DNA from: Trebouxia sp. TZW2008
Lineage: Eukaryota > Chlorophyta > Trebouxiophyceae > Trebouxiales > Trebouxiaceae
Direction of reading: 5' to 3'
Assembly (NCBI GenBank): GCA_002118135.1
Contig: BDIU01000008.1
Span: 62,001-126,000, forward strand
Length of the DNA: 64,000 nt
The position numbers and the translations under genes were made by a program. Every line of letters begins with the position of its first letter. Within the stretch, counting starts at the first letter, position 1. Shown here one piece after another: positions 1 to 58,400 of the stretch. The notes under the pieces were generated by a model. It was given only the letters and a program-made list of their open reading frames with translations, did not search any database and had not been told where the DNA came from.

Positions 1-1620
1 ATGTGTCTGCTGCTTGGCCAGCCTAGATCGCCAATCTGAAAATGTCTTTCAGTGCAACGCTTGTCAGCACACTGCTTTCGGTGCTGTTGCACAGCCTGTA
101 GGCACTTATTCACTTTGACTGTGGCTTTTTATCCGTTGCCAATGTAGTCAGTAGCAGAAGAAGCTTTGCTAGGCTTTTTGACCAGATTGAGAGGGCAATC
201 TTGGATGCCTGCCATAGTTCAAAAGGCGTATTACCAATGCTTGCCTGTTGAGGACTGATGTGGTGACGCAACATGTCTTCAAGAACTTTATTCATGTGTT
301 CTGTCTGTCCTTCTGACTGTAGGTGTTAAGCAGTTGTCTCACCGTGCACAGCGCCCACAAGCTCACAGATGGCAGCAATGAATTTGTTTATGAACTCTGG
401 TCAGACGCAAGGGCAACCCATGCAGTTTCCAGACCATGTGTACAAACATTCTAGCCATGTCTTTAGCAGTGAATGTCATTTTGGCAAGGAGCAATGTGAG
501 CCTTTGTGGTAAGCTTGCCAACCGCAATCAGGACAGCTGTGTGACCTTTCTATGTTTGTGGCAGGCTGACTACGCGATCAGCAGTGATATCATCCCATGT
601 GCCTTCTGGGGTTGGAACAGGCATGAGCTTCCCAGCAGGCGGCTGAATGGAGGCCTCGTTCTGCTGGCATGTCTTGCAGCCTTTGACATATTCCTTGATG
701 TCTGTGGACATTCTAGGCCAGGGTACATGCGTTGCGCATTGTGGCGGGTCCTATGATGTACTGCATGGCTTGAGTATTGAGCAACATATAGCTCTTGCAG
801 AATGCTCTGCTTGAGATCACTTACATCTGGCACAACTAAAGCATCACCTCGGGAGTACAATCCCTTTTGCACATCAAGCCATGCTGTGTTACTGCCTTTA
901 GCAAACCAATGGTCTGTTGTGTAGCCCTGAATGATTTGACTGAGCAGATCCTGATCTGCCTTGGCCTGCAGCACTGTCAGCTTCAACGTCAGGTTCTGCA
1001 GCCTCAGTTGTTGCAGTCTTGTTGCCAGCTGTTGCACTGCGTCTGACTAAGTCTGACTGCAGCCAGCTAGGGTAGCATGTCAAGCAGTGGCAATCAAGTT
1101 GGTTGTGCCCTGACCGCTGCAAGCACCATTGTAGCAACTTGTGAAGGGTGTCTACTGATAGTGACACCTACATTGAATCTGCCTCACAGATCTAGGTGGA
1201 GGTCTATATTTGTAGGTGAAGTGGAAGCGTGAGAGCCTCTCAGCCCACCGGGCTTGCCTTGGCGAGAGCAGGGTTTTGGTGGCGAAGAAGGTGTTGGGAC
1301 TGTGATAGTTTACAACTGTGAATTCTGTCCCAACTAGGTAACACCTCCATGACTCCAATGCGTGTATGACAGCAAGGAGTTCTTGCTCACCTACAGCATA
1401 CCTCGACTCTGCGTCTTCCGTACGCTTGCCCTCAAATGCATGGGCCGACCGTCCTGCATGAGGGCAGCGCCTAAACCCACTCCAGAGGCATCGCAGATGA
1501 CCTCAAATGGTCACTCCAGGTCTGGTAAGGCCAGCACTGGGGCCTTACAAAGCGCATATTTAGGCCCCAGCCCTGCATCTGTCAAAAATGTGATCTGTCA
1601 CAAATCACTGGTGTATACTC
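1..1620 (-). mobile_element. Degenerate Ty3/gypsy retrotransposon fragment (RNase H to integrase)
   Basis: Read on the minus strand, the segment runs in the order expected for a Ty3/gypsy pol gene. It starts with an RNase H region near 1620-1480 (ALPDLE, a stop, then FEVICDASG). The RNase H continues at 1430-1190 (AVGEQELLAVIHALESWRCY, then LLSPRQARWAERLSRF). The integrase HHCC-like segment lies near 870-700, and the integrase core end near 390-200 (SEGQTEHMNKVLEDMLRHH). The copy is dead: the frame changes several times, and a TAA stop stands where the usual Tyr of the TAYHPQ-type motif is expected. The 5' half (gag, protease, RT core) and both LTRs are not visible; the element either continues beyond position 1 or is truncated. 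The Ty3/gypsy call is confident; the boundaries are approximate. Confidence 0.85.
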
Positions 1621-4926: not shown

Positions 4927-6235
4927 AGCTTGCCAAAGATCAACAACATGTGCAGGATCAGACCTTGCCAGATACTTTTCTCGTTTGGCTGCCTGACCTG
5001 TGCTTGTTCAAGGCAAGTCCAATGAGCCAGTCTGGCTTTAGGTCTTGCACCCGGACTAAACAAACGGTTGGTCAGCTGAATGACTACAGCAATGCTCACC
5101 TACAGTTGTGCCTCCTTGCTTCAGGTCAATTGATTGACTACAGCAATGCTCACTCACAGTTGTGCCTCCTTGCTTCAGGTGTTGAAAAACCCTGAGGATT
5201 TCGACTGGGTTGCACTCCGCAATGGCATACCCTTCACGGCTGTGCGGGTGGGTATTGAAATTGAGAGGCAGCCGCTGTATGCTGCCCTTTGCAACCATAA
5301 GGGGACCATGATACCAGGCAAAGCTGGACATCACATCACCAGCTTAGGAAAACCAGCTGGCCTATATGGTGATGGGTATCTCTCTGATTCAGACAACACC
5401 TTTATCATGTGCGCAAGACTAGGTGTCAGACCTGTTCCCCAGTGGATTTCTCAGGAACCTGAACAGCCATATACTAAGCCAGTCACACCAACAGGCACAC
5501 TTGATGCAGCTTCCATCAACATCGACAACAAAACCGTCTGCGATTTGGACGGCAGCCCCAGCTTTGTTGCACGGGCCATCATCAAGACCCTTGGCCAAAA
5601 GGTGGGGAAGTCTTCTGCCACCCTTTTGCACCTGCATTTTGGGCTGGAGAGCAGAGAGGCGCGGTCTTTTGAGCCCTATGAGGTGAGCCATCCAAGCTGA
5701 AAAGTATCAAGCTGCACGTTCAGCAATGCAGTCAAGAGTGTTGTCATTTTGCAAGTCAGGAAAGTGCACCGCAGCAGCTTGTGTAGGAGCCTTGCTCTCA
5801 TGACGACTGCGCTCCACACTGGCTCAATGTCATCACTGCATTTGCCGTCAGCATACTTCAAGCGCTTCAGGCACAGACTTGTATATTCTTGGCTGTGCTG
5901 ACTTGCACCGCACCATGTTTGGCAAGTGCATCGAGCTCTAAAGCAAACATGTACCTGTATGGTTATCAATCATCAGGCTGTCATGCATGCTGCCCTGTTG
6001 TGATGCATCAAATCAGCTGCACAGTCTCATTGCTTGACTGCTGCAAGCTTGGTAGAGCAACCTGACGATGTGGCCAAGGCTGTCATTGGTTACATTCCTG
6101 ATTGCAGATACTACGTAACCCCAATGATTTTGACTGGAAGCCAGCTGGTTCAGCTGGCATCAGATGGCCACAAGACGCTGTTCCAATGGGAATGGACAGA
6201 TTTGGATCCACAATCTATGCTGCGCTATGTTACAC
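4927..6235 (+). CDS. DM9-like (DUF3421) domain protein exons, putative mannose-binding
   Basis: Exons visible are 4927-5012 (ELAKDQQHVQDQTLPDTF, with a GC donor after TTCAAG), 5179-5682 and about 6045-6235 (IPDCRYYVTPMILTGSQL; donor gtaagc). The middle exon resembles one DM9 repeat. It begins with W-V-A-L-R-N-G-I-P, followed by A-V-R-V-G, then PLYAALCNHKGTMIPGKA and a Gly-rich G-L-Y-G-D-G-Y stretch. DM9 proteins of animals (for example the oyster CGL1 type) bind mannose. Whether this copy keeps a sugar site cannot be judged by eye. A further piece at about 6530-6650 (VPGMAITDSTQKKGFAASYS) is probably another exon. The B-lectin exons follow 0.8 kb downstream on the same strand, so these may be parts of one gene; an unresolved phase mismatch near 6045 and 6530 leaves this open. 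No start codon is assigned. Confidence 0.5.
5072..5178 (+). repeat. Two-copy tandem duplication of a 3' splice site (about 54 bp unit)
   Basis: Two adjacent units both contain tgactacagcaatgctca and end in ttgtgcctccttgcttcag. The first ends at about 5124 and the second at 5178, the acceptor of the DM9 exon. The intron therefore carries two nearly identical acceptors. Confidence 0.85.
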
Positions 6236-11702: not shown

Positions 11703-14700
11703 TTATGACTGCATATGTACAACTGAATGGATGGACACTTGACGAACCTTGTGCTCACATCCAAATGGAGCTTTGAAATGGAGCACTGCATCATAGATTC
11801 GGCTGTGTCCTGAGTATCCATGCTGCTTGAGCGTTGCTCCAAAAGTGACGTCGTCCGCTACAGAACAGGCACCATCTTGACATTTCAGACTGCTGACATG
11901 CCAGCTGACATGCCAGCTAAGCAGACAGAGAACCACAGCCTGCCATGCTTTGGCAAATGGCGTTTTGCAGCTTTGAACGCGCATCTTTAGCTACTCTTGC
12001 AGTGGCTGCAGCCACTAGGCTGGCCACATCATACTCTGCCTGAGCATTGCTCAAAGCTTTGCGCCTCGCTTCTTTCTCTTTGTGGGCTGTACTGCTGGCC
12101 AACCTGGCCTGCCTAGCTTCTCCGTCCAAGGTATCAAGGATCGCAACCCTGGCACGGAGCTTGGACTGAACCTGCTTGCAACAGGCAGAGGCTTGTGCAT
12201 ACGAGGTCTGTCTGCAGAAAGATGGTGTGCAGTGCAACCGCTCAGGAATGGCGTTAGTTCTAGAAAGTCACGACCAGAAATCTGGAGTTGCCTAAAGTTG
12301 TGCACAGCTGGTGACTCTGACCAGGTGTAGCATGGCGCACCAAGACAGCTCATTACACATCTTGCAAACAGACAACAGCTTTGCTGACGCAGGTGCAGCT
12401 GTTCAAAAATGCAGAAGACACCAACACTGCATGAAGGTGCAGACACACACCGCGTGATGTGAATGCTTTGCAAATGCAGATGACACCAACACTGTGTGAA
12501 GGTGCAGACACACACCACTACAGTTTCGTGTTTTGAAGATGACAGAAAGATGTCGCACCTCAGCCAAAGTTTGAGACAAGTCTGAGCCGCTGAGGCTGAG
12601 GTCCTCAACAGCATGAGCGCTTGCTGAATCAACAGATGGAGCAGGGGCTGTTGTAGAAGGGTGCTCAGCCTGCATGTGCATATCTTCCCGTGAAGGTGCA
12701 GACAATGTGCATGCCTTGGAAAGGACAGAAACGATGTTGTCTCAGCAAAAGTGTGAGACAAGTCTGAACCGCTCAGGCTGAGGCCCTCAACAGCATGAGC
12801 GCTTGCTGAATCATCAGACTGAGCTGTATGCGCTGCCGTAGAAGGGTGTTCAGCCCGCATGTGCATATCTTCACATCTCAGCAGCAGCAGATGGGTAACT
12901 ATATCCTGCTTACGCTGCTTACTATTTTGTTTTCATTTCATTCAAAACGCGTGCTAGACAGGCTCAGCAGGCCCAGTTAGGTGCATACCGAAGCAACCAA
13001 CTGTCTCCAATCATCTCAGTCCTGTGCTGTGCTGACCTTATACCATTTGTACTCAACATGGAGGGAAGAAAGGGCCTTGTACAGGCGGGTCTCTACATAC
13101 TGCTTACACTGGTTGCTAAATGCTTGCTTATGGCCTGTATGATATCGCTTCATCAGTGATGCATGACACACCTGAAGCTGATGAGAATCACATAGTCACT
13201 TACAGCTGCTAAGGGAGAAGATTGTTAATGAATGCAGCCTAAACAAGCCAAGCAGGCATGACTGATGATGTGTTGAGGGCCAGAAGTCATCACAATTGTC
13301 ACTCAGCACGGTCTCTTGAACTAAAGCCAGCATGTCTGCGACAGGCTTAAGGCAAGCTGCAAACAGAGAGTAGATGCGCCAAAGTGGCACGAACAGCTTG
13401 CAGTATGGTCTATTGAGCCTTTATACATGGCAGACAATGTGTAGATGGCCCATTTTTTCCCTCTGTGTTCAATACAATTGGTTGTAGGTTAGCACAGGAC
13501 CAAACTGGTTGGAGACAGTTGATTGCTCCAGTACATACCTAGCTGGGCCTGGTGAGCGTGTCTAGCACTGAGTGAGTGAGTGAGCGAGTGAGTGAGTGAG
13601 TGGGTGGGTGGGTGGGTGGGTGAGTGCGTGGGTGAGTGAGTGAGTGAGTGAGTGAGTGAGTGAGTGAGTGAGTGTGAACAGCTCATGCCACATGACTCTA
13701 GCTTTGCCAAAGGGCTGACAGCAACAAGCAGCCTTCACAAGCATCAGATACAGGACCTTCTCTTTGTGAGGACGTTTGATGCAAGGACACTCAAGGTAGA
13801 CACATTCTCAATGTAAAGACAATGTCATTGGGACCAATCATTGTTGTCTGACTGCAATGGCACCTGTCAGTAAGAACAACTTGATGTGAGGACAATCTGC
13901 TTGGTAGCCAAAGCAATTGTTACAAAGAGAAGTAACTGTAGAAGACTGCGAGGAAAGTTTGATTGCATACCTTTGCAAGCTGATGTGGAATGGTGTTGTG
14001 AGGGTGATCCAGGTCTGCTGCAATTGATGAGGCTTCACTGCTTTCACCATCGGAACTATCTGTCTCAGAGCTGCAACTTTCCTCTGAAGCAGACTGCATA
14101 CAAAACACACAAATCAAGGCTGCTATCATGATTTGGGTGCAGCAACTGCAGTACCCGTGCAGATGCTGCTCAACTTATTTGCGCTGATGTATATGATGTA
14201 ATGTGTCACAAGCCCTTGCAGGAATTCCAATGTAATGACGGTGTCTGATTCTGGGCAGAGCATGCAAGTCGCGTTGTGAGGCCACGTGCCAGAGGTGTTT
14301 AATTGGAGGTGCATACATTTGGCAGCTGCAGCTGTCAGGCAAAGCACATGACTAAGCATGACACACACGCTATGATGGTTCAATGACCATGCTGCTCACT
14401 CAAGAGCAGGGAAAAGTTGTTGTGTTGCACCAACAATCGTGATCCTTACATGTTCACTCATGCCCGCATTTGCCACAGCTGCAGCACCCTCCTCTGCATC
14501 TTCATCACTGTGAATGCCCTGCACCAACAGCTCTGCAGGCTGTTGCGTTTGTCCAAGGACCATGCAACAGTGCTTTGCTGAAAAGGAGGCTCTGATAGTA
14601 TGCATGATGCCTGCCTGCTGTCTGATGGACAGCAATGTGCACAGATAGCAGTCTCCAGCAAAGGCAGTGTCGATGGTTGCTTGCAAGCCCAGCACCATGT

Positions 14701-17700
14701 GACACACAAGAGAATGCAGCAACACTGACCCCTTTGTATGTATTGCCCAAGCCATTTGGCCTGTGTTGTCGGCAATGCAACATTGATAGCATTGCAGCTT
14801 GCATAACAAAATAGTAGGCAAAATGCACGCGCCTGACACATGAACTAGGTATGACTGTAATTTTGCAACACTTCCTCACTGTACATGTCAGATCACATAC
14901 CGCATGTACAGCTGGTGCAATACAGTCAGCTGATGCCGGGCGTCCGTCCAGACCTGCAGAAGCTGAATCTGCAGTGACGTGCACATCAGAGGCCAATGCA
15001 TGCTCTTCCTGCAAATGCAAAGGTTTACATTGGGCCTGGCAATTGAGGCAAGACACATTTCTAATAAACGCCGCAATGTCAGTAACACCAGTACTGAGCA
15101 GCCCATAAGAAAGATGAGTGAGGCAGCTGATACAGCAGGTGCAAAGCAGCAGATTCAGGTGCTTTGCAAACAGTAGCCTCTTGATAGCATGATATATCAG
15201 CATGACATACAAGACCCAACTTATATGCCAAAGTCATTTGCACAACTTGACCACTTTGAGCTTGCCAATTGAGCAGGTTTTACACAGCATAGCGTGGACA
15301 ATCAAGCCAGAGTGTTGCAATGTCAGCATGACACAGAGAGCTATTGGCCTGCACAATGCCATGAGTTCCTTGAGATGGACTGTGTATCAACAGACTTGCA
15401 TCATCATCTTCTGCCATCTGTTGCTCCAGGGTCAGTTCAAAAAATCTCTCTGCTAACTGCGCTTTTGTGATCTGCTTGCTGAAATGCCAAAATGAGACAC
15501 AAACCCTACAGGCTTGCACGATCCCATGTGTGCTGCCTGGTAGTCTATTTATCTGCAGACTCACCTCATCATGTTCAGCAATCTCTTGCTTCAGGGTAAC
15601 TTGAAAAGGCTCACTGCTAACCACACTTTATGAGCTGCTTGCCATGTGCTGAAATGCCAAAATAAGACACAGAGCCTACAGGCTTGCGAGATCCCGTAAG
15701 TGCTGTCTGGTCGTCTATTTATCTGCAGACTCACCTCATCATGTTCAGCAATCTGTTGCTTCAGGGCCACGTGAAAAGGCTCACTGCTAATTGCATTTTT
15801 GGAGCTGCTTGCCATGTGCTGAAATGCCAAAATAAGACACAGAGCCTACAGGCTTGCAGAATGTCATGGGTGCTGTCTGGCACTTGATTTATCTGCAGAC
15901 TCACCTCATCATCTTCTGCCATCTGATGCATGAGGGCCTTTTGGAAGAGGTTCTCTACTAGGTCGTCCTTTTTATTCTGCTTGCCATGTCGCAAGCCATG
16001 AGCTTTGCACCAAGCTTTCAGCTGTTCCTGCGAGATTATGCAAAGCCTGAGTGCACACGGATGGGCAGTCAAGCAGTAGCATTTGCTAGATGGAAGTAGA
16101 CATTCTGCTAGTAACACTAACCTTATGGTGACGCCCCAGTTCTTCTTGACCCATCTCCCAAATCACAGCCAGCTTTGGCACCGCTGCGGGCGATGCTGTG
16201 TCTTGTTGTGAAGGCCAAAACTTCACACCAAAAGTGCCCCTTGCTCTCTTTGGCTGATTTTTCGCACCAGAGGTAACCTTTGCTCTCTTTGGCTGAGGCC
16301 TCACACCAAGAATGCGCTGTCCACTTCTTGGCTTGGTGCAGTGGATCTGCAAGGCCAACAACACACGTCCAACAGCAATCTCAGTCATGATACAAATGAA
16401 GGATGACATATGATGACAAGAGCAGTATGTGTGTGTGATACAAGCTTGACAGGCTGGTTTGCTTGTGCATAACAGTGAGGATGTCTGATGTTCAAAAATT
16501 GGTTGGAGACAGTTGATTGCTTCTGTACACACCTAGATGTGCCTGCTGAGCCTGTGTAGCCCACGTTTACAATGTATGAAAAAATGAATGTACCAAAACT
16601 GCAGGCCCCACAGGCTACAATGCTAGCACAGACTGCACTCGTGCGCTGCATGTCAGCATGCATACCAACTTGCATATCAGCATGTACATCAGCATACACC
16701 AGGGTTGCTGAGGATGTTGTCTAGCAGATGACACATTAGCTGCTTGGCAGGCCTTCACAGCATAATGTGTGCAGTGTTTCATGTTGAAACCTGTGTTGGG
16801 TCAGGTGCTCCTGGTTCAGCTTGTATAGGCTCAATTCCAGCATTGGCTCTTTCAACAGATGCTTTGTGGTACGCCGCAAAAGCATGTGCCCTGCTTGCAA
16901 GACAACACTACCTCAAGGTTGCTGTGACAGTTATGTAGAACGCAGGCACAAGAAATGTCAACAATGTTTCATGCATCAGGCAAGACTTGACGTACGACCA
17001 AGCAGCAACTGGTTGGTCATACCAGAACTGGCTGGGGACAGCTCATTCATTTGTTCACTCTAAACGTGTGCTAGACAGGCTCAGCAGGCCCAGCTAAGTC
17101 CGCACCGGGGCAATGAACTGTCTCCATTTTGACCCTATGCTGTCCTGAATCATTTGTACTGGGCATGAAGGGATGGCTGGAGACAGTTGATTGCTCCAGT
17201 ACATACCTAGCTGGGCCTACTGAGCCTGTCTAGCATGCAATTTGAATAAAATGCATGAAGCAGCAAGCTGTGAAGCCACAAAGGCAGTGTATCTTCTGTT
17301 GACTATCAAATTATTTCAGAGAGAATCACTATGCAAAGGATGTGCACTCCTTTGAGTTGTTACATGCAACAGCACAGCAACAGCTTGGTGATCTACGTGA
17401 TGGCTGTCATTCTGGGACCCCAAAAGGACAATTTTTGCAAGTCAAGATAATCACTAAGAGTGCTGCTTGCACAGTCCGCTTGGTGGCGCCGTGTAATGCA
17501 TCCTTGATGCGCATTGATTGTTGTCTTAAGCAGCAAAAGTTGACTTACCATTCCTTGCCATCCTGAGCAAATGACGAATATGACCGCCATGTAGCTGTTT
17601 TGCCTTTCAGTTTGATTACGCCATCATGACCGTCGCGGTAGCATGTGGACAGTATGCTGTTTAACTGCTCAATGGCAAACTCTGGCCAGTTTTTCTGTTT

Positions 17701-19086: not shown

Positions 19087-22000
19087 ATGGCACGAGGTCG
19101 GAAGCGCAAGGGAGAAGAGCACGCTGAGAGCTCTGACAGCGAAAAGGCTATTTCAGATCCAGAAGAGACACCTGAAAGCCTAGAGGAAGAGGCAGGACCT
19201 AGTTCAGGCTCAGCAAAAAAGGGTCTTCATGTAAACCCGAAGCGCGTACGCGAGCTCAGAAGCGGCACTGTCAAGAAGGGACCTGTCGTCTACTGGCAAG
19301 TCGCGCGCAAGCGTCTGTCTGGCTGTTCCTTGCACCCTCACCATGGCTTCTGGCATCTTGTTGGCCTTGTAGTAGTCAGGTGCTGTGATCACTCAAGATT
19401 GCTTACCTGCAGGATGTCACGGGACCAGAGACACAGAGACAACTGGGCCCTTCTATATGCCTGTGAAGTTGCTGCGCGCTCAGATTCAAACGTTGTGGTT
19501 GTTTTTAACCTGGTAGGGGCTTTTCCTACTTGTGGCTTGCCATTAGGTACTCTGCAGAGGTAGAGCAAACATGCTTGATGTCCATCTTGCAGGTCAAAGA
19601 GTTTCTTGGCGCTGGTGCACGTCAGTGGGGCTTTCTTGTGCGGGGCCTGCGTCAAGTTGAGCCTGCACTCAAGGCCCTCAACATCCCATTCTACATGACC
19701 TACGGCAAGGCAGAGGACAATTTGCCACAATTGATGGATGACATCGGAGCTGCCCTACTGATTTGCGACTTTGTACCTGTGCGGGCTGCACGAGAGTGGC
19801 GAGAGAATGTAAGGCACAAGCTGTGTTGCACCATGTTTGCGCCGTCCATCCTCCATTGATTTGCAACTTTGTACCTGTGCGGGCTGCCCGAGAGTGGCGA
19901 GAGAATGTAAGGCACAAGCTGTGTTGCACCATGTTTGCGCCGTCCCAATCCTGCAGCATTTGCTGCGCTCGTTGTCCTTTCAAGCAGCATCCAAGTTAGT
20001 GCTGCTTGAATTACTTATTGCACTGTACCTCCATGATGCCATGACTCACCTTCAAAGCAGTTGACAGGGCCCTAGCTGCCTTGCTTTCCCATACTTGTCA
20101 AATGTCTTGTATGATGAAGCATATGGTCTGATTCTGTCTTCTGCTGTCTTGATGCCTTGATAATGTAAAGTGCATAGACCACTGCAGTGTGCCTTCCGCT
20201 GCAGTGCATGTGCCACTGCAGCCATCAGTACAGCTGATTGGTGTGAAAAGGTGGCGTGCAACTGGCCAGCAGACGTGCGCTAAGATGTTGTTTGCATGTG
20301 CTGTCACAACCATCAGAACAGCTGCTTGATGTCAGACTTTGGCGCGCAGACATGCTGAGCTGCCCATTCCCATGCGTGAGATGGACACATGCAGTTTGCC
20401 TGTACACATGTACTGAGCTGTTGATCCCCACTCATGGATCAAAATGGTGCAAGTTACCTGCAGACATGTGCTGAGCTGTCAATCCCCATTCATGAGATCA
20501 AAATGTGCATGTTGCCTGCAGAAGTGTGCTGAGCTGTCAACCCCCATGCATGAGTAAAAATTGTGCAACATGACTGCACATGTACTGGAGCTGTCAATCC
20601 CCATGCATGAGTTTGAAGTGTGCATGTTGCCAGCAGACATGTGCTGAGCTGTCAATCCCCATGCATGAGGTAGACACACACAACGTGGTCCCTGTCTGGG
20701 AAGCCAGCGACAAAAAGGAAACTGGCGCTCGTACCATCAGAAAGAAGATTCAATCCAAGCTGCCAGAATATCTTGAGGTGATCCTTTTGACCCTTAACCT
20801 TTGACGTTGTCAGGCTTGTGTCACGGCTAATGCCATACTCATGTGGCTATGACTGCCTCTAGACTCACTCTGTGTAGTGCAACGGCAAGTCTGGACCTAT
20901 GGTTTAGAACTGCAGCAGCATGATCATTAGAGGCATGTGCATACTGTATGTTGCATGTCTCCTACATTGTGCAGTGTTTTCATCTGTCTTTCGCTTTTGC
21001 TTTGCTAGCAAGCCCTGCTCAACGTGAGTGCAAATCCAGTTCAGCTGCATACAGCCTTGGTGACGCATGCCGTCCCCATGGCATCACTCTCATTGCTGTC
21101 AATCTACTTTAATGGGCTAGGGTCAATAGCCCAAGCTAGGCATGCTGTGCTAGGCATCCAGTAGACTAGGCTGTGCCATGTCACATATCGGCTATCATAA
21201 ACTGGTGCTGTCTAGGACTCTCCTGACATTGCAAAGCAGAAGAAACGTAGGCCAAGCATATGTCAGACAAAGTTTAAATGCTTTGCAGGACTTCCCTGAC
21301 ATTCCCAAGCAGAAGGAGTGGAAGTCCAAGCGCATGCCAGACAAGATTGACTGGGATGGTCTAATTGAGGAGGTGCTGCAGCGTGGCACAGATGTGCCTG
21401 AGGTTCCCTGGTGGAAGCCTGGAGAAGATGCAGCGTACGAGGTGACCTGCTCGCTCAAACCTCATTCTTCCCTGCTTCTTGACAAGTGACAGCCTTTCAA
21501 GACTACAACAGGGCTGCAAGCATGCCTTTGCCAGGACAAATAGACTGTTGTATTTATTGGAAATGCTTTCCTACTCAATACCTGTGGTCCAGATGTAACT
21601 GTTACTGGTGGCACCTGGACAAATGGACTGTTGTATTTGTTGCAAATGCTTTCCTGCTTGATAGTTGTGGTCCAGATGTACCTTTTCCTCGTGGAAACCT
21701 GGCAAGGTTGCAGCCTAAGAGGTGACCTACCTCACACCTGCTGGTTTTGACAAGTGACAGTCCTTGGGGACATAGGCTATCCCTGAAGCTGCACTGCTGC
21801 AGTACTTTGGAGCTCCTGTTCATTCTATACTTGACGTGCAGGCATGCATCCTAGTCAACTGCCATTGCAAAGACCTTTAATGATGAGCGGTCACTGAAGC
21901 AGTGTATTGTGCAATGCCATATTGCTTTGCAATGATTGCCCTGGTGGACTGGCAAGATAGGATGTCCGGGGCCACCACCTGGCGCCTGTGCTGAGACAAC

Positions 22001-25000
22001 TCTCAGTGTGTTTGTTACTGTTGTTGTTGCTGATCTTCAGCTGATTGGTTTCATCTGCAGGCGTTGAATGGCAAAGAGGGGTTCTTGACACCTGAGAGGC
22101 TCAAGAACTACAACACCATGCGAAATGATCCCTGCTCTCCCAAAGCGGTCTCCACACTGTCAGCCTATCTTCATTTTGGCAACCTGAGTGGCCAGAGGGT
22201 TGCACTGGAGGCCTCAAAGCACAGGAAGAAGTACAAGGTCTGCTTCTCACGCTCACCTCAGTTGCTATGCATTTTGGCCTGAGTGGCCAGAGAGCTGCAC
22301 CAGAGGCCTCAAAGCACAGGAAGAAGTACAAGGTCTGCTTCAAAAGCCAAGCTGTGCTGTGAGAGTGCTGTGCACGCAATCAAGCTTGTACAGCTTTCCT
22401 TACACAATGGTGATACTGCTGTGTGTGCAAGATTGACAATCCTGCAAGCAAACTTGCTGCTCTCCATCTGCAGTTTGATGGGAAGCCACCGTTCTACAGC
22501 AACTTTGCATGCATCATGCCCTAGACTCCAACAGCAACAGAGCCTTGCTCCTCACAGTTGAAAAGTAAAGCAGCCAAGTTGGTTTTGTTGAAGGCAGGGG
22601 AAGAGGTTTAGTCAAATGCTAAGTGTAGGTGGAACAGACAAGTCATGTTGCAGGATGCCGTGTACGCCTTTCTGGTTGAGATAGTGGCGCGGTGCGAGCT
22701 TTCATACAATTGTTGCCACTACCAGATCAGTGTCGTTGAAAAAACAAGGGGGCTGACTGTATGCTGAGCATTCACACAAGAGAATCTATCTCTTTTGCAG
22801 GATGCTGTGGATGCCTTCTTGGACGAGGTGGTGGTAGGATGTGAGCTGCCAGACAACTTCTGCCACTACCAGATCAGTGTCATTGCAAGAACAAACAGAG
22901 CGTTGACTATATGCTGAGCATCCATATGAAAGACTCACTTCCTTTTGCAGGATGCTGTGGATGCCTTCTTGGATCAGCTGATGGTAGTAAGACGTGAGCC
23001 GTCAGACAATTTCTGCCACTACCAGCTCAATGTTACGGAACAACAAACAAAGTGCCAAGTTTATGTTGAGCATTCACATGATTCTGTCTATTTTGCAGGA
23101 TGCTGTGGATGCCTTCTCAGATGAGGTAGTTATAAGAATTGAGCTGTCGGGTGACTCCTGCCACAACCAGATCAATGCCACTGAAGGGTTAAATACAGGG
23201 CTGACTATATGCTGAGCATTCACATAGCTCCGTCCTTTTTGCAGGATGCTGTGAATACCTTTTGGATGAGGTGGTGGTGAGACGTGAGCTTTCAGACAAC
23301 TTCTTTCACTAGCAAATCAATGTCATTGAAAGAACAAGCATAGGGCTGGATATATGCTGAGCATTCACATGACTCTGTCTCTTTTACAGGATGCTGTGGG
23401 TGCCTTCTCGGATGAAGTGGTGTTCAGGCCTGAGCCAACAGACAATTTCTGCCACTATCAGAAAAATGTTACGGAACAACAAATAAAAGCGCCATTTGGT
23501 TGCTGAACATTCACATGACTCTGGCCTTTCTGCAGGATGCTGTGGATGCTTTCCTGGACGAGGTGGTGGTGCGGCGCGAGCTGTCAGACAACTTCTGCCA
23601 CTACGAGCCCAACTATGACAACATCAAGGGTGCATCGCAGTGGGCTCAAGACAGCCTGGAAAAGCATAAGAGTGATGAGCGGGAATACATCTACACAATG
23701 TGAGTCTGGCATGCTTCATCATCATCATCACCATCAGCATCATCTACATGTATATTGGTGAGCCTCTTTGTCCCAGCTAGGTGCATACAGAAGCAATCAA
23801 GTGCCTCACAGTTCTGTCCAAAGCCATTTTGTGTCTGGCATGGCTGCTAGTGAGGTTTGGGGACCCATTTCAGTGCATTCAAAAGCAATAAACTGCCTCC
23901 AACAAGCGGTGCATTCATAAAAGCTGAGGGAAGCTGACACGTGACTCTCTCGTGATCCGCCTCCTCGCCACTCCTGACCATGAAGAGTGTAAACCAGCAA
24001 AGCAAACATCGCAATCACTGGCAAAATGCAACAGTGACGGCAGGGACATATGCTTTGCTTACTGCTTGGTGGATCAGGCTTGGCATCTGCGTGACGCATA
24101 TGTTATCATAGTATGCATGTGTCTTTGACAGTGTTGTACGCCGCACTTTGATCTACATGCATAGTCATGATGATATCCTCATTTCCCCCTATGTGACAAT
24201 CACAACTCAGTTCTCACACTGAGAACAAGTTATCTTTTGCCCCAGTGGTATGTGTCCTGCAGCGACCTGATTTCTTCATGCTGTAGGGAGCAGTTTGAGA
24301 AGGCAGAGACTGATGACGATTTGTGGAATGCAGCTCAGATGGAGATGGTGCATTTGGGCAAGATGCATGGCTTCATGCGCATGTACTGGGCCAAGAAGGT
24401 CTGCCTTCTCAACATCCGCTTCAACTTCTGCTGCTGCTGCTCAACTCAATACTGCCTGTCATGACACATGGAGCCCCCTCACACAGTGCCGCTCATGTCA
24501 GGGAGCCACCCACTGTTGTGTATGCCAAATTGTCCGCCGCACTGCAGCATGTTATAAGACATCCTCCTCAACTTTGACCTGTCATATCACATGAGACCTG
24601 TCATTGTGGGGCTGTTATGCCAGGCAGCTGTCTACTGACAGAGGCCTTGACCTGTCAATGATGGTGCACAGCTCTACAATCATGTTCCTCAGCATGTTCC
24701 TCAACATTTACAACGCCTGCTATGTGACACATGAAGGCCTTCGCTGGGGCATTTTTATGCAAGGGAGCTGCCCACTGACAGCAGCTGTTTTGTATGCCGC
24801 ATTGGCCGCAGCCCTGCAGCAATGCACCTTCAGACTGACTAGAGTCAGCACCAATGCACCATTTTGTGTGCATGATTGTGCAATGTTAAAGCTGTCAGCA
24901 TTGGAGCCAACAGAAGCTATCACTCCGAAGTGGCTACCACCTGCTGGCTGTGTCGTTCTGAGGATGCTTTCAGGCTTTGTTTTGGCAGCTGAGCCTGACA

Positions 25001-25962
25001 ACGAAGCAAACTCCACCTGCACTTTGGCAAGATGCATGACTTCATGCATGTGTACTGAGCCAAGAAGTGTTGCCTCCTCAACAGTCTCCTTGGCTTTGAC
25101 CTGTCATGACACATAGAGCCCGTGCCATGGGTCTGTTATGCCAGGCAGGTCTTCTGACATAGGCCTTCATGTATGCGTGATGGTGCGAAGCTTTGAAGCA
25201 CAATAGCTGCCGACATGTATAGAGGTGTCATAGCGTTACAGTCATCAGCATTGTAATCCGTGAAAAGCATCACATGCCAATAATATACTAGCTGATGCAA
25301 ATATCTTCAATTTGTCGTGACTGCCCTGAGGGCTGCTGCAGATTTTGGAATGGACACGCTCACCTGAGGAAGCATTGGAGATTTCCATCACGCTGAATGA
25401 CAAGTATGAGATGGACGGTCGCGACCCAAATGGCTATGTGGGCTGCATGTGGAGTTGCTGCGGAGTCCATGACATGGCAAGTCCTCTGAGATGTCACTCC
25501 TCATTGTCATCATCACCACGTGCTTTCTTGTGAGCATCTTTGACTTGGCCAGAAACATACAGAAGCAATGTACTGCCTCCACACAGTGCTGTCCAGAGCA
25601 AGTTCTGGGATGTACTTGCAATCACAAATACACACAGAATAAGCTCCATCATTTCTGTCTAGGCCAAGCTCACAGGATGCTCCATTTGCACCCATTTGAC
25701 TGACATCTGGGGACCTGCACAAGGGTGCATCACAGATTGTACTCTCAGCTGTTGACGCAACGAGAAACAACACTGCAGAGTCACTTGCAGGCTGTGTGCA
25801 ACTGATGCCTGTGTGCTGCAGGGTTGGACTGAGAGAGCAGTATTCGGCAAAGTTAGATACATGAACTACAACGGTTGCAAGCGCAAGTTTAATGTTCAGA
25901 AGTATATCGACATGGTCAAAGAGAAAGTGGAGGAGTTGCACAAAATACGTGGGGACAAGTGA
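19087..25962 (+). CDS. PHR2: Class II cyclobutane pyrimidine dimer photolyase
   Basis: A flavoprotein that uses blue/UV-A light to reverse cyclobutane pyrimidine dimers. Ten exons join in perfect phase: 19087-19295, 19413-19512, 19593-19808, 20637-20777, 21289-21441, 22061-22237, 23535-23699, 24291-24398, 25342-25476 and 25822-25962, giving 514 residues, the normal family length. Class II hallmarks are the N-terminal [17 protein letters not shown], the alpha/beta segment [48 protein letters not shown], and the FAD-domain stretch [19 protein letters not shown]. The C-terminal part reads [20 protein letters not shown]. The ATG at 19087 is followed by RGRKRK, a nuclear-signal candidate. Introns 1 and 9 appear to use GC donors (TG|gcaagt and ATG|gcaagt). 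Seven of the exon edges have flanking duplicate copies, listed separately. The symbol follows the algal name of this class. Confidence 0.96.
19760..19958 (+). repeat. Tandem duplication of photolyase exon 3 end and its donor (98 bp)
   Basis: The last about 48 bp of exon 3 (gactttgtacctgtgcggg through gagagaat) plus 50 bp of intron after |gtaaggcacaag are repeated immediately downstream with very few differences. The real donor is at 19809 and its copy at 19907. Near-identity suggests a recent event. Confidence 0.95.
20340..20680 (+). repeat. Six-copy array of photolyase exon 4 start and its acceptor (about 58 bp)
   Basis: The phrase gctgagctgtcaatccccat, with variants, recurs at about 20355, 20411, 20471, 20530, 20587 and 20646. 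Each is preceded by a ctgcag/cagcag acatgt acceptor-like context. The last copy is the true exon start (ACATGTGCTGAG, encoding [12 protein letters not shown]). The older copies have lost the frame. Confidence 0.92.
21205..21345 (+). repeat. Duplicated start of photolyase exon 5
   Basis: At about 21211 the intron contains aggactctcctgacattgc followed by aaagcagaag and gccaagcatatgtcagacaa. This is a diverged copy of the real exon 5 start at 21289 (gacttccctgacattccc, then aagcagaag). The offset is about 77 bp. Confidence 0.85.
21410..21770 (+). repeat. Duplicated end of photolyase exon 5 and intronic direct repeats
   Basis: The exon end tggaagcctggagaagatgc plus gaggtgacctgctcg, and the downstream ttgacaagtgacag, recur in diverged form near 21690-21765 (gtggaaacctggcaag, then gaggtgacctacctc and tgacaagtgacag). 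The intervening DNA holds a two-fold repeat of gacaaatagactgttgtatt. Confidence 0.8.
22165..22345 (+). repeat. Tandem duplication of photolyase exon 6 end and donor (about 95 bp)
   Basis: The segment cctgagtggccagag through gaggcctcaaagcacaggaa and tacaag|gtctgctt occurs twice. The real donor is at 22238 and the copy donor at 22333. Identity is high, and both donors look equally usable. Confidence 0.93.
22640..23640 (+). repeat. Seven-copy array of photolyase exon 7 start, about 147 bp period
   Basis: The sequence caggatgctgtggatgcctt and the following exon text (gacgaggtggtgg, gagctgtcagacaacttctg, ccactac) begins at 22654, 22801, 22951, 23099, 23244, 23390 and 23535; the steps are 147, 150, 148, 145, 146 and 145 bp. 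The unit is about 75-90 bp of exon plus about 60 bp of intron (gctgagcattcacatgactc, then a pyrimidine tract and cag). Only the last copy continues into the full exon ([13 protein letters not shown]). The others diverge after CCACTAC and hit stops. Confidence 0.97.
24355..25125 (+). repeat. Diverged copies of photolyase exon 8 end inside intron 8
   Basis: The exon 8 end (gcaagatgcatggcttcatg, then gtactgggccaagaag) and following intron text (gccttctcaacatccgcttc) recurs at about 25025 as gcaagatgcatgacttcatg, then gtactgagccaagaag. Between them, phrases such as tttgacctgtcatga and ctgttatgccaggcag recur several times, so intron 8 is itself built of diverged repeats. Confidence 0.8.
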
Positions 25963-47588: not shown

Positions 47589-50500
47589 ATGACGGGCGTG
47601 CCCGACGCACAGCCAAAACCGGCCGAGGACCAGGAGATACCCGGAGCACAAGCATCTCATACCGATCCAGATGCACAAGTGAGCTGGAGATGTTCAAGCA
47701 TTCCAAGCAGCCCATCGAAGCAAGAGAGTAAACGGTCTGAAATGCAGGTTATAACTCCTTGGGACGTCACTGGGGGTACAGATGGCAAGATAGACTATGA
47801 CAAGCTCATTAGAGAGGTACATGCTATGAGCGCATTGCCGGCATGCATGCAATCTAGATGTCCGCATAACACTGGCCCTATTGCTGCAGTTTGGAGTCAA
47901 TGCTATAGAAGAAGACTTGGTTCAGCGGTCAGCTGCCTTTGTTTGCTGTGAGAAATGGCAGAGATATTCTCACAAATGCAAACATTGCACTGTCATGTAT
48001 GATTGTTAATTTCCATGCACCATGCAGGGTGGAGAGACTAACAGGCAAACCTGCGCATCCCTTTCTGAAGCGACACGTCTTTTTTGCTCATCGGGATTTC
48101 AAGGAAATACTTGACTGCTATGAGAAAAAGATTCCCTTTTACCTTTACACTGGCAGGGTATGCTCTTTTGTCCTGCCAGCACACTGAGCATGCAGCCTGC
48201 ATTGAGCCTTACAAGCAAGTCACAACAGTTTTGATTGCCCCATTTGTGACTGCCTCAGCATAATGACAACACATATGTTCTGCCATGGGAGGATCAATAA
48301 TGTCTGTTTCTGTAGGGGCCATCATCAGAGGCATTACATCTTGGGCACTTGATACCCTTCATGTTCACACAGTATCTGCAAGAGGCCTTCCAGGTTCCCC
48401 TTGTAATACAGCTGACTGATGACGAGAAAGCATTATGGAGGCAAGCCGCCATCATGCGCATGCCAGCAATACATGTGCCTCAGCTTCACCCATTCAACCA
48501 TTATCTGAATTGAGTGTATTGATTGGAACACGCTTGCCAGGCTTCAGAACCCAGCGATTAGGTTAGATACATACAAACGCAATTTACTGCCTCCATGCAA
48601 ATTTCCTGTCAGAAATGTTTTGAACCAATTAACTTGGACATGTAAGGCAGACACGTCCTTGTACGCCATTTGCTGCCAAGTCTGTTGATGGGCACTGGAA
48701 ACCCCAGGACCTGACATTGACTCAACACATGTGGCTGGTCTTGATGTGCATGGTCTGCATGCAGAGGGCTTGACATCAAGGAGTCTCAGAGGCTTGCCAG
48801 AGAAAACTGCAAAGATATCATTGCCTGCGGCTTTGATGTGAACAGAACCTTCATATTCAGTGATTTTGGCTACATGGGCAATGGAGGGAGCGGCTTCTAT
48901 GAGAACATTGTCTCAATACAACGGTGAGCCTTTTTGCCTGCTGCAATACTCTATTATCTTGCACTTTTTGGCTCCTGGGAATTATCGCCCAGTTGACTTA
49001 GTCAGCAGAGCTTGTTTTGCCTTTAACTGATCCAACTTTGCCCCCGTTCAGCTGATGCTGCAGCATTTGCATGTTGCTTTGCATTGACTGCATGCTTGTT
49101 TCGGTTTCTACATGACACCGGCAAGGGCTAAGTGAGCAATGTCAGATTCTGTGGGCTGTATCAACAAGGTGCCCACCACCTGTCCACGTACTATTGCATG
49201 CTTGCATGGAAACTGCCTGGTGTGTTTGATAAGGTCAGAAGCACAAAACTTTGCCAGCAATCTTAGCTATCAAACTTTGCATGACAATTTATAAACCACC
49301 AAGCATTATAGAATGCTGTCCCATTTGCTGTATCAAGCACAGCATGCTGTCTGCGCAGTGCTGTGACCATGAACCAAGTGCGTGGCATCTTCGGCTTCAC
49401 CATGGAAAGCAACATTGGCAAGATAGCTTTTCCAGCAGTTCAGGCTGCGCCATCTTTCCCTACATCCTTTCCCCACATGTTTGGCAACAGGCGAGACCTG
49501 CGCTGCCTGATACCCTGTGCAATCGACCAGGACCCATACTTCAGAATGACCAGGTATCCTGCTTCCTGTGCATGTCTGCTTGCTTTATTGCTGCTGTGTT
49601 GCAACACATGTTGCAGAATGACCATTTATGCTGATTGCCGTGCTTGTCTTCTTGCGCCATTGCAGCTGCTCTGTGATGCATTCTTCACCATGATCAGGTG
49701 TGGATATTGTGCTTGTCCTGCTGCGTTGGTGCAGCCACTGTGAGATCCTGGCCCATAAGCCTTTGTGATCTATGGCAGCTCAAGCATTGATGTAGCTCGA
49801 CAACTTTGGACATTACTTGCATCATCAATGCCGTTCATGACGTGATGCAGAAAACTTTTGCTGAAGCAATGTACCTGATCTGCAGAGATGTAGCTCCAAG
49901 AATAGGGTATCAGAAACCAGCCTTGATAGAATCCAGATTCTTCCCAGCTTTGCAGGTATGTGCAAGCTTTAGGTGCCTTGATAGCCGCACAGATTTGTAC
50001 TGGCAATGCATCTTGAATCAGGACGCGCGCAACTGTAGCATGCTGTCAGTCTTGTGTGCAGCTGAAAGCCAAGCAGTGCAATACATGCAAAGTGTCCATG
50101 TGCAGGGGGAAAGTGGCAAAATGAGTGCTAGCGACGCAACATCTGCAATTTTCACAAGTGACACTCCAAAGCAAATAAAAGACAAGGTCAATCGATATGC
50201 CTTCTCTGGTGGCGGCACAACTGTTGAGGAACATAGAGCAAAAGGCAAGCACCTCCATCTCCATGTTGCATTGCATGCAGGCACTCTGATTGTATGATTG
50301 CAGACACATGTGTAGCATATCTGCTCAGTGCAATTCAGAACATTGTCAGCTTCAGATCCACTTGGTTTATGTGTTGAGGCTCACAATTCTTTGCAATTTT
50401 TGCCGTGCGACACTGTCAAGCATGCTCGCAAATCAAGCTGCAATATGCAGCTTCTGCTGCAAAGATTAGGCTGTAGAATGAACACATGTGTAACCTGTAG

Positions 50501-55419: not shown

Positions 55420-58400
55420 TCACAACCATGTTGGCGGTGTCCTTGATTTGCCACTTGGTGACACTCTCTTCAATGCAGATCTGCCTTTCTTTGAAGTGTC
55501 TGCTTGAACTCCTCTGCTAGGTTGATCTTTGACCTCATATATTCTGACCATCCAGTGCTCTGTTGTGTACACCTCCTCAAAGTACTTGAGCGAGATGTCA
55601 GTCACCCCTATGTTAGTGTTGCGCACTCTGTCAAACCCAAATCTACCTGTCACTAGCTGAGAAGCCTCTGCAAATCTGTAGTATGACATCTTGTACATGA
55701 TGCAATCCAGCATGGCCTGCAGCAAAACCACAGTGTTTCATCCCCTTACAGCACAACATACAGCAGAACACATGCAAAGGAATGATGCCAAGCTAAACCA
55801 TATACAAGACTGAAAGCTGCCATGCTACTGCGACCGTTGCTTGATGCATGCAGCGACTGCCACAGTATAAGATGCATTTAGTGATTGTTCTGACAGACGT
55901 GAGTGCAGCAGAAATGGCACGGCAGCAGCGGTCTGCATTGACGTGCACATGCCTGATGTCCACGACTTTGCAATGTCTGCAATTGCTTCAAGGATTGATA
56001 AGTCTGTAGGTTTGAAAGCAACAACAGGCACAGTCAGCTTTGCTACTGGTGCCTGGTTGGCCAAGTCTTCAACAGTGTACAAAATGGCGTGTTTAACAGT
56101 GTGTGAAACAGTGTGTGTGACAGTGTGTGTGACAGTGTGTGTGACAATGCAACACATGTATACAGCAATGATGTGATGGCACCCACCTTGCCAGCTTTGT
56201 CATCAATGGTGTATCCACGCTCCCCAAGGTAGTCTGGTTCCTTGATGTCAGGAAACACACCACCACCAATGCGCACCATCCACAGAAACTTGTTGATGTC
56301 ATCACTCGGGTATCTGCCATAGCAAAACGTCACTCAAGCACCAAGTTTGAACACAGCATGCCACAAAGATGCTGTGAAAGCCTCTATGAGTGTGCAGAGA
56401 TTGCGCCTTGCACTCAATTACAAGTGCAGACGACTAGAGTCTGCACTGCCACAAAACTTTGTCAACATTGGTTCTGCTAGGAGAAACAGCGTAGTGGGTT
56501 TGTGCATCAGTTCCACCAGTGTATGCGCAGCCTGTTGCTTACCTTGACCAACAATCAACTACAGCGCCTGGCACAGCTAGCAAGGTACATGATAGACTTC
56601 ATTAAATGCAGTCCACCATCATGTCAGCTCATCCTATGAAGCTGCCAAACACCACCAGCACTTACTCACATTCAGCTCTCTGTAGATCTGCCGCCTGTGC
56701 TAAATTGTATGACTTCTCATTGATATCAAAACATGTCAACTCACCCTATGAAACCGCCAAACACCACCAGCACATACTTGACATCCAGATCCCTGTAGAT
56801 CTGCCAGGCCTGTTCCTCAGGGGAGGCCATGGCCCGCCCCACTGTTGCTATGTGGGTGTTGTTCCAGGTGTTGTTGTCCACAATCACCGTCCTGTTGGCC
56901 ATTGCAGTTGTCTGATAGCCATAGTCCCACCAGCTGGCAACCTACACAGCCAGGTCAGTCAGATCTCACCCACTGCAAAACTTTCATTGCAACAGTCAAG
57001 AGGCTCAAGATTGAAGGGAGGCCTGCCATAGGGTTGAGAAATGTCAACACAGCATGTGATGCAGGCTGCAGGAGAATGGTCACTACGCAGATTACGCTCC
57101 CTTCTTGGCACAACTTCAGGAGGCATCTACATCCAGGCACAGGCTTCTTGACACGCTGGACAACAACTTGGTTGTGTATGCCAATTTGACAGCTGGTCAT
57201 GCACTACATGAGTGTCACATTTACAGCCAAAACCATGGTCCCATGAAAGTGTGTTTTGGAGCGATCAAAATGGTCTTCGCCCTGACTCTAGCCAGGTCAA
57301 CAGAGACTCACATTGCACTGCCATGCAAGAGAATATTGACTTATGTTGCACATCAAAACAATGGCTCTGTACATCAATCCTATGATACTACAAACTAGAA
57401 AGGGATTGTGCAGTGGACCTACCTTTGCTTCTTCATCAGTGTTGTGACGCAGCCAACCGTAGGCTTCCCTGAAGTCATCAAACACATGTACCCCACCCTG
57501 AGGGCTGCGAGACTGCAGCACTATGGAAGGAGCCGAGTACATCTCAGCGCTGACCCAACAGCAGTGGAAGACGTAGAAGACCAGCATACAGAAGAAGAAA
57601 AAGGCGCCCACAACTCCAACGTCTCTGGGCAGCTTGCTGTTGGGGTTGCCAAATAGGTTGAAGGCATTGAAAGGGGTGGCCTCACTGCTTCTGAGAGATG
57701 GGTCCTTCAGTTTGCCCTGCATATCAGAAGCAGATGGGGTCTTGTTGATGTCTGTAGGGAAGAAGTATTTCTGCCATTACAACGGCAAATGTTGCTTATT
57801 TGTGCTAGTTATTTGAACAATTGACATTGATCGAATGACTATGCATCAATCAGACAGGCCATGAGCATCCACGACTCTCTGAGCTTGAGTCTTATTAGAC
57901 AGTGATGACTTGCATGCATGAAACTCAAATGTAGACATCACACAGCCCAACAATGTCGCTGAGCTCAAGCAGCAGAGCAACAACCCAAGCATACACATGC
58001 AGGTCACGCTTGACAGGATGCAAACAGGCAAGTCTGAAGTGTGCTCAACCAATGTGATTTAATATGATATGAGTGGATCCAAAGTCCAATACAGGCTGTG
58101 GAGCTGCACCATAAAGCATCAACAGAAGCCAAAACCCACCTTGCCACAAGTCTTTTGGCAGGAGTCTCACAGGAATTGAAACATGCCAAACCGCATTGGC
58201 AGAGGTGTTTTGTCTCTTGCCAGTGGTAGTCGAATCTGCAGGCTGGTCTATTCCAGCCAACAGACTTTCCACAGACTCCAAGCAAGACTCAATACAGTAA
58301 GCAAACTATGCTCATCTTGGCAGAGGTCTTCTGTCCCTTGCACAAGACTGTTTGTGGACACGTTCCTCAGCCTCAATCACACATGCTTTACCTTGGCAGA

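What the first reader, a model, noticed from the sequence alone, without database searches (positions are those of the whole stretch)
19760..25125. Photolyase introns are built from tandem copies of the exon edges next to them
In a gene whose ten exons assemble in perfect phase, seven exon edges are copied. The end of exon 3 occurs twice (98 bp), the start of exon 4 six times (58 bp), the start of exon 5 twice, the end of exon 5 twice, the end of exon 6 twice (95 bp), the start of exon 7 seven times (147 bp), and the end of exon 8 at least twice. Each unit spans a splice junction, so exon and intron sequence were copied together, and only the copy joined to the rest of the exon still reads. 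The same design recurs in the SAP, STT3, TrpRS and DM9 genes of this window. This implies a general process that tandemly duplicates DNA across exon-intron junctions and so lengthens introns. Intron gain by duplication of AGGT-containing DNA is a known idea; a genome filled with junction-spanning arrays is not something I can place.
Basis: partly seen in the sequence, partly recalled or inferred. Interest (0 to 1): 0.88.

Follow-up and report, generated by a model that had tools for sequence, protein, structure and literature searches.

The report
Tandem exon-edge copies lengthening algal introns
In this green alga (nearest relatives are lichen-forming Trebouxia) short stretches of DNA are often duplicated side by side inside genes, and where the stretch crosses the border of an exon the intron grows and is left holding dead copies of the exon's edge with usable-looking splice signals, which makes these genes a natural test of how cells choose the right splice site.

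Summary
The class II photolyase gene has ten exons that join in phase, and seven exon edges are repeated with their splice junctions in neighbouring introns. STT3, TrpRS (weakly) and the 'SAP' gene show the same; DM9 barely does. It is widespread: in 37 gene models (271 introns; 20 sampled stretches plus the window) 60 local direct-repeat components touch a splice junction, 26 are intron-only, 7 match exon interiors; 59 of 271 introns carry a junction component. Spacings are 63-223 bp for 58 of the 60.
A 'junction-targeted process' is only partly needed. A naive null rejects chance (P=4e-19), but simulated random tandem duplications, purged when they disrupt exons, give junction:intron-only ratios of 0.84-1.36 at realistic intron lengths, against 2.3 observed: a residue of 1.7-2.7-fold (P 0.035 to 2e-5). 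About 40% of junction components are incompletely aligned for a clean tandem repeat (simulated 11-20%). Best reading: widespread small tandem duplication, tolerated at junctions because the exon-attached splice site keeps the frame; most copies then drift. Tandem duplication across exon-intron boundaries is known singly; density and arrays are the new part.

The parts
19087..25962 (+). Class II CPD photolyase gene, 10 exons: 19087-19295, 19413-19512, 19593-19808, 20637-20777, 21289-21441, 22061-22237, 23536-23699, 24287-24398, 25342-25476, 25822-25962
   Evidence: PDB 2xry E=1.7e-34 on exons 1-3; spliced alignment to Trebouxia P0001 (82% identity) gives the same internal boundaries
19759..19955 (+). 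End of exon 3 plus donor, 2 copies, 98 bp; upstream copy is the exon, downstream copy is in intron 3
20346..20669 (+). 58-bp array of the acceptor and start of exon 4; the last copy is attached to the exon (20637-)
21206..21344 (+). Start of exon 5: intron copy 21206-21270, true edge 21279-21344
21383..21765 (+). End of exon 5 (21383-21496) and its intron copy 21667-21765; an 83-bp duplication 21531-21702 overlaps the copy
22172..22341 (+). End of exon 6 plus donor (22172-22246) and intron copy 22270-22341; true and copy donors have equal weight-matrix score (6.3)
22648..23612 (+). About 147-bp array of the acceptor and start of exon 7, seven copies; the last is attached to the exon; the six intron copies keep AG
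24349..25083 (+). End of exon 8 (24349-24414) and intron copy 25018-25083; the copy has lost GT
49542..49668 (+). TrpRS exon 7 end plus donor and a 55-nt intron copy that has lost GT (gene exons 47592-51050)
59104..59683 (-). STT3 exon 7 end (59584-59683) and copies in intron 7, about 147-bp spacing
58196..58430 (-). STT3 exon 8 end (58393-58430) and two short intron copies, 92% identity, neither with GT at the junction position
56620..56813 (-). STT3 exon 10 end (56732-56813) and one intron copy (56620-56698) that has lost GT
15312..15989 (-). 'SAP' gene: donor-side edge of exon 15905-16027 (85 of 123 nt) in a 164-172-bp array
   Evidence: gene model from my gene finder only
12533..12872 (-). 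'SAP' gene: exon 12559-12669 with both flanks, duplicated once (84%)
   Evidence: gene model from my gene finder only
5070..5180 (+). DM9 gene: 54-bp repeat of the acceptor region of exon 5179-5682, only 2-3 exon nt in the unit

Best explanation
The genome undergoes frequent small direct tandem duplications, about 60-220 bp long, placed largely at random in genes and outside them. Events inside exons are mostly removed by selection. Events inside introns are neutral. Events that cross a splice junction duplicate the exon edge with its splice site; they survive because the copy attached to the rest of the exon is still the one spliced (upstream donor, downstream acceptor), so the protein is unchanged and the other copy becomes intron. 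Repeated rounds give arrays and longer introns. Shown here: the copies, their junction-crossing, the spacing range, the direct orientation, recurrence in sampled loci, in-frame parent exons, and decay that is mostly but not wholly neutral-looking. Inferred: the mutational step (my candidate is fill-in of staggered breaks followed by end joining), that selection removes exon-internal events, and that exon definition lets the cell ignore decoy sites.
For: Direct repeats dominate: 232 direct pairs under 1 kb apart against 33 inverted pairs at any distance in 27 chunks. Spacing 63-223 bp, median 133.5, for 58 of 60 junction components (the other 2 are 400 bp or more apart); spacing mod 3 is 23:27:29 (remainders 0:1:2) over 79 components, so no reading-frame constraint on the unit. 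Repeat coverage: introns 13.6%, exons 10.1%, outside predicted genes 8.0%. The metaprofile over 214 introns shows no peak at the junction and a decline to 1-3% about 100 bp inside exons. Donor and acceptor edges are hit about equally, 27 and 29. Intron copies carry frame-breaking indels in 23 of 109 and stops in 9 of 68 testable. Random-duplication simulations give junction:intron-only ratios near 1 at realistic intron lengths (353:408 over 8 runs; 158:166 over 4; 361:336 over 8), so junction copies need no special targeting to be common. Six new stretches gave a like result, 11 junction and 5 intron-only. Small tandem duplications from fill-in of 3' overhangs plus end joining are demonstrated in mammalian cells (PMC8355091, passages read).
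Against: Observed 60:26 exceeds the nulls whose final introns are realistic (ratios 0.84-1.36; P 0.035 to 2e-5). Nulls with shorter starting introns come closer (340:246 and 417:226; single trials 23:13 and 45:18), but their final introns average 266-341 bp against 472 observed. In 40% of 58 junction components the aligned block is under 0.65 of the spacing, against 11-20% in simulation, so a clean tandem event is not visible there. Alignments stop within 13 nt of intron in 50% of copies against 25% simulated; among copies up to 12% diverged, 12 of 24 against 10 of 115. Third-codon-position differences are 48% against 41% simulated. Most gene models are predictions. No RNA was examined.
Confidence: 0.7

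Rival explanations
1. Duplication is biased to exon edges: breakpoints or repair templates favour splice junctions or exonic DNA (transcription- or splicing-linked breaks), so junction copies form more often than random placement gives.
For: Residual 1.7-2.7-fold excess over the nulls; 35:12 in the first random loci and 11:5 in new loci; with six doubtful components removed still 54:26, and 42:17 in random loci alone. Copies ending at the junction and incompletely aligned units.
Against: Coverage metaprofile has no peak at the junction, though decoys themselves raise the intron level. Residual significance depends on simulation settings. Most gene models come from my own gene finder; in the three verified genes the count is 11:3, too few to decide.
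Confidence: 0.15
2. Some copies are functional: alternative exons, or decoy splice sites kept for regulation.
For: Third-position share of differences is 48% (58% in the 24 copies up to 12% diverged) against 41% simulated. Dinucleotides are intact in 31 of 41 donor and 55 of 63 acceptor copies mapped at the junction, with median scores close to the true sites. The gene finder paired copies in the photolyase exon 7 array with nearby donors and called them small exons.
Against: In the five regions read by eye (STT3 exons 7, 8, 10; photolyase exon 6; L015) no strong partner site was scored beside the edge-only copies. Frame-breaking indels in 23 of 109, stops in 9 of 68. STT3 exon 8 and 10 copies and the photolyase exon 8 copy have no intact donor. 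Spacing is not a multiple of three. The C0006 photolyase aligns without internal gaps to the protein made without the copies.
Confidence: 0.1
3. The introns themselves were born by tandem duplication of AGGT-containing exon DNA (Rogers model).
For: Units carry both exon and splice signal; intron gain by a duplication crossing an intron-exon boundary is documented in potato (PMC4974935, abstract and results section read).
Against: Here one edge of an existing intron is copied into that intron, sometimes several times; the intron's two ends are not the two copies of one unit. Intron positions were not compared with relatives.
Confidence: 0.04
4. Assembly error or a mobile element (introner).
For: None found beyond the repetition itself.
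Against: In photolyase, TrpRS and STT3 the matched copies differ by about 5-31%. The photolyase exon 7 array matched only its own locus in the 68.5-Mb genome (best candidates only, so a lower bound). Copies match the adjacent exon and are in direct orientation. Read coverage could not be examined.
Confidence: 0.01

Closest known systems
[quoted passage not shown] Ma, Lan and Niu 2016, PMC4974935; abstract and results section read)
   Same: One tandem duplication containing intron end plus exon start; splicing signals inherited from the parental junction; that paper also notes an 83-bp duplication inside an intron
   Different: There a new intron and inserted exon result; here the old intron lengthens, the predicted protein stays the same, copies form arrays and many genes are affected
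Internal tandem repeats at human exon-intron boundaries (De Grassi and Ciccarelli 2009, PMC2812944, passages read; author names recalled)
   Same: Repeat units lie at exon-intron boundaries and can change splicing
   Different: Those are variable repeats among recent human paralogues with RNA support; here single genes, no RNA, and no evident isoform change
[quoted passage not shown] 2007); seen only as reference-list titles, content recalled
   Same: Genome-wide view of duplications inside genes
   Different: As I recall they centre on duplicated exons or intron creation, not on decoy junctions left in growing introns; not checked in the papers
Small tandem duplications by Pol alpha-primase fill-in and end joining (PMC8355091, passages read)
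   Same: Produces direct small tandem duplications, by the authors' account independent of repeats or homology
   Different: Shown in mammalian cells, the introduction speaking of insertions under 100 bp; spacings here reach 223 bp and I have no algal evidence for the mechanism

Membership tests
Intron gain by tandem duplication (AGGT model) | The intron runs from GT in the first copy to AG in the second copy of one duplicated exonic unit | tested here: not met
   In the three verified genes copies lie inside an intron next to one edge; donor-edge copies match the upstream exon end, acceptor-edge copies the downstream exon start
Intron gain by tandem duplication (AGGT model) | Intron absent from relatives | not tested
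   No algal relative genome was available in the tools; only relatives' proteins were seen
Small direct tandem duplication across exon-intron boundaries | Unit contains exon and intron sequence on both sides of one splice junction | tested here: met
   11 of 14 components in three homology-verified genes count as junction components; the rule allows a block to end up to 8 nt short of the junction, and the STT3 exon 8 matches have no intron nt
Small direct tandem duplication across exon-intron boundaries | Copies adjacent, block length equal to spacing | tested here: inconclusive
   In 60% of 58 junction components the aligned block is at least 0.65 of the spacing; the rest are shorter than simulated decay gives
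Mutually exclusive or cassette exons | Each copy has both splice sites and a conserved frame | tested here: not met
   Copies examined are mostly one edge only; indels and stops are present; a minority with a coding-like substitution pattern is not excluded
Introner elements | Same sequence inserted in many unrelated genes | tested here: not met
   The photolyase exon 7 array matched only its own locus in the genome; copies resemble the adjacent exon. Only this one array was searched genome-wide

The most novel reading that the evidence does not exclude
Duplication in this lineage is genuinely focused on exon edges: a transcription- or splicing-linked break-and-repair process copies an exon edge with its splice site into the intron, often with a spacer, at roughly twice the random rate, and some copies are kept under coding constraint as alternative edges.
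Probability: 0.15. Interest if true: 0.82.

Novelty: new variant of a known kind. Interest (0 to 1): 0.55.

Why it matters
It gives a concrete mutational route for intron lengthening without transposons and a large natural set of competing, near-identical splice sites (seven acceptors in a row before photolyase exon 7). If the protein is to stay intact the exon-attached site must win each time, which bears directly on exon versus intron definition in green algae. The arrays also warn annotators: my gene finder called decoy edges in the photolyase exon 7 array as exons.

Tried and rejected
Naive placement null (P=4e-19) rejected as misleading: it uses aligned length instead of spacing as unit size and ignores slower decay of exon-matched copies. 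First simulation trials with 230-bp starting introns gave 23:13 and 45:18, close to the observed ratio, but with final introns averaging 266 and 290 bp; I therefore matched intron lengths in later runs. Coverage metaprofile showed no junction peak, but intron coverage includes the decoys themselves, so it is not decisive alone. The sharp ending of similarity at splice sites looked like a copying rule; by eye the STT3 cases look like decayed copies, and I left it unexplained. Breakpoint microhomology: only three near-complete tandem pairs at 90% identity or more were found, one of them in a C-rich repeat, too few to use. Nucleosome-sized units: the spacing histogram is broad (63-223) and was not tested against a model. 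First gene-finder run over-predicted small exons and was replaced. First spliced aligner had a bug, fixed; only one search is used. Paper search found none; that found one unrelated paper.
Full report
WHAT IS THERE. The window lies in a 68.5-Mb genome of 527 contigs. Its photolyase is closest to Trebouxia sp. C0006 (82%) and C0009 (78%), STT3 to an unnamed 2.5-kb contig (87%) and Trebouxia C0010 (85%), TrpRS to Trebouxia C0009 (86%). The organism is therefore a Trebouxia or close kin (inference); I do not name the strain. The photolyase gene has ten exons (19087-25962) that join to 515 aa with no stop. A spliced-alignment program I wrote, using the C0006 protein and splice-site weights trained on this genome, returned the same internal boundaries; it ends a few codons before the stop. 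It also gave 11 exons for TrpRS and 12 for STT3, so 30 introns are homology-verified.

THE REPEATS. Self-comparison of the three verified genes found direct repeats: no inverted matches, and one match in total against reversed sequence. In photolyase the edges of exons 3 (end), 4 (start), 5 (start and end), 6 (end), 7 (start) and 8 (end) recur in the neighbouring introns; STT3 has exons 7, 8 and 10 (ends); TrpRS has exon 7 (end, weak). Three further components in photolyase are intron-only. The copy attached to the rest of the exon is the one that fits the protein; the C0006 photolyase aligns to it without internal gaps.

SAMPLE. I trained a small gene finder on the window and 14 other stretches, split its chains in the window into genes by hand, dropped predicted exons under 60 bp, and classified self-matches (same orientation, under 3 kb apart) by components. 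In 27 genes (214 introns; three genes homology-verified) there were 49 junction components, 21 intron-only and 7 in which an exon interior matches an intron. Matches lying mainly in exons on both sides were dropped before counting: 11 of 165 pairs (my sum over the 27 rows; not tallied for the later loci). Six new 10-kb stretches gave 11 junction and 5 intron-only in 10 genes and 57 introns. Together: 60, 26 and 7 of 93. Of 271 introns 84 hold a component and 59 a junction component; 23 of 37 genes have at least one junction component. The dynein gene in L008, with 18 introns averaging 268 bp, has none. In the 14 first stretches the reversed-sequence control gave 1 match in all. Pfam supported the eight random-locus proteins submitted (dynein, citrate-synthase-like, flavodiiron, PP2C, SMC, RNB, UbiE, UbiA) and the DM9 gene; the 'SAP' protein matched only Ish1 below its cut-off. 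I submitted 10 of the predicted proteins, not all.

IS THE JUNCTION SPECIAL? Placing units at random, not wholly in exons, predicts 15.4 junction components of 70, against 49 seen. That null is too weak: the unit is the spacing (median 133.5 bp), not far below intron length, and a copy of an exon edge has a constrained partner, so the pair decays more slowly than two intron copies. I simulated random tandem duplications with the observed spacings, rejecting exon-internal ones, with substitution and indel decay, and ran the same detection. Starting from the lengths of introns without repeats, eight runs gave 353:408 (final mean 486 bp); starting from 0.7 of those lengths 340:246 (341 bp); from 230 bp 417:226 (319 bp); the observed mean is 472 bp. 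Refined versions gave 158:166 in four runs and 361:336 in eight (Fisher OR 2.15, P=0.0018, against 60:26). Varying exon constraint, indels and history, six runs each, gave 312:336, 376:277, 312:308 and 353:419, that is ratios 0.93, 1.36, 1.01 and 0.84, P from 0.035 to 2e-5. Removing six components whose exon has under 40 nt outside the repeat leaves 54:26; against fixed null proportions of 0.482 and 0.576, P=0.0004 and 0.045 (this filter was not applied to the simulations). In the verified genes the count is 11:3. So much of the pattern needs no targeting, and a 1.7-2.7-fold residue is unexplained. The coverage metaprofile has no junction peak.

NATURE OF THE COPIES. Of 109 intron copies with at least 20 exon nt, differences from the true exon fall 293:242:497 on codon positions 1:2:3; 23 of 109 have a frame-breaking indel and 9 of 68 testable have a stop. 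Simulated neutral copies give 0.32:0.26:0.41, with stops in 20 of 120 and frame-breaking indels in 109 of 286 at an assumed indel rate, so real copies are somewhat more third-position-biased and carry fewer frame-breaks than that model; shared ancestry within arrays inflates the significance. Splice dinucleotides are intact in 31 of 41 donor and 55 of 63 acceptor copies whose alignment reaches the junction, with median weight-matrix scores of 5.6 against 6.0 and 6.3 against 6.4 for the true sites. The cell must therefore discriminate; choice of the exon-attached site is what exon definition predicts (inference).

UNEXPLAINED. Half of the copies stop resembling the true edge within 13 nt of intron, against a quarter in simulation, and among those up to 12% diverged 12 of 24 against 10 of 115. 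In 40% of 58 junction components the aligned block is under 0.65 of the spacing, against 13% simulated and 11-20%. Faster intron turnover, spacer insertion at formation, or coding constraint on a subset could each do this; I could not separate them.

COMPARISON WITH THE LITERATURE. Tandem duplication as a source of introns is reviewed in PMC3443670 (passages read). A duplication crossing an intron-exon boundary is described in potato (PMC4974935, abstract and results section), repeats at human exon-intron boundaries in PMC2812944 (passages), and Drosophila and fission-yeast intron gains by tandem duplication in PMC2891723 and PMC3629103 (passages). The Trebouxia 'A48' paper (PMC12712428, term search) has one occurrence of 'intron' and none of 'exon' or 'tandem' in its main text. 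My ten searches, judged from their listings, showed no description of junction-crossing arrays across a genome; the library holds open-licence papers only.

VERDICT. Real, widespread in the sampled genome and mostly described by known mutational and selective principles, with a modest junction excess and a sharp-ending pattern left open. New variant of a known kind.

On recount I mended the number of dropped pairs (11 of 165), the description of the 'SAP' exons, and added results that weigh against or qualify my reading (intron-only repeats in introns averaging 728 bp, the short-intron nulls, possible partner donors in the exon 7 array).

Noticed in passing
window 19296, 25477 (photolyase), 48441, 50245 (TrpRS): Four of 30 homology-verified introns start with GC instead of GT (GCAAG context), which seems a high share; the usual figure of about 1% is recalled.
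   Followed up: no
L008 1-10000: A dynein heavy chain gene with 18 introns averaging 268 bp and no detectable direct repeats, in contrast to most other sampled genes.
   Followed up: partly
window 571-1459, - strand: Predicted protein fragment resembling a retroelement integrase region (my reading; no domain search was completed on it).
   Followed up: no
window 27809-29147: A tandem array of about 179 bp units in introns of a gene that looks to me like a tRNA methyltransferase (no domain search); counted as intron-only.
   Followed up: no
window photolyase and TrpRS genes: In Trebouxia sp. C0009 the two best matches carry nearby locus tags (ABBQ38_001097 and ABBQ38_001090), suggesting conserved neighbourhood.
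   Followed up: no
L011 322-1447: Repeated exon-like units; the gene finder reads several as exons, so real protein repeats and decoys cannot be told apart without RNA.
   Followed up: no
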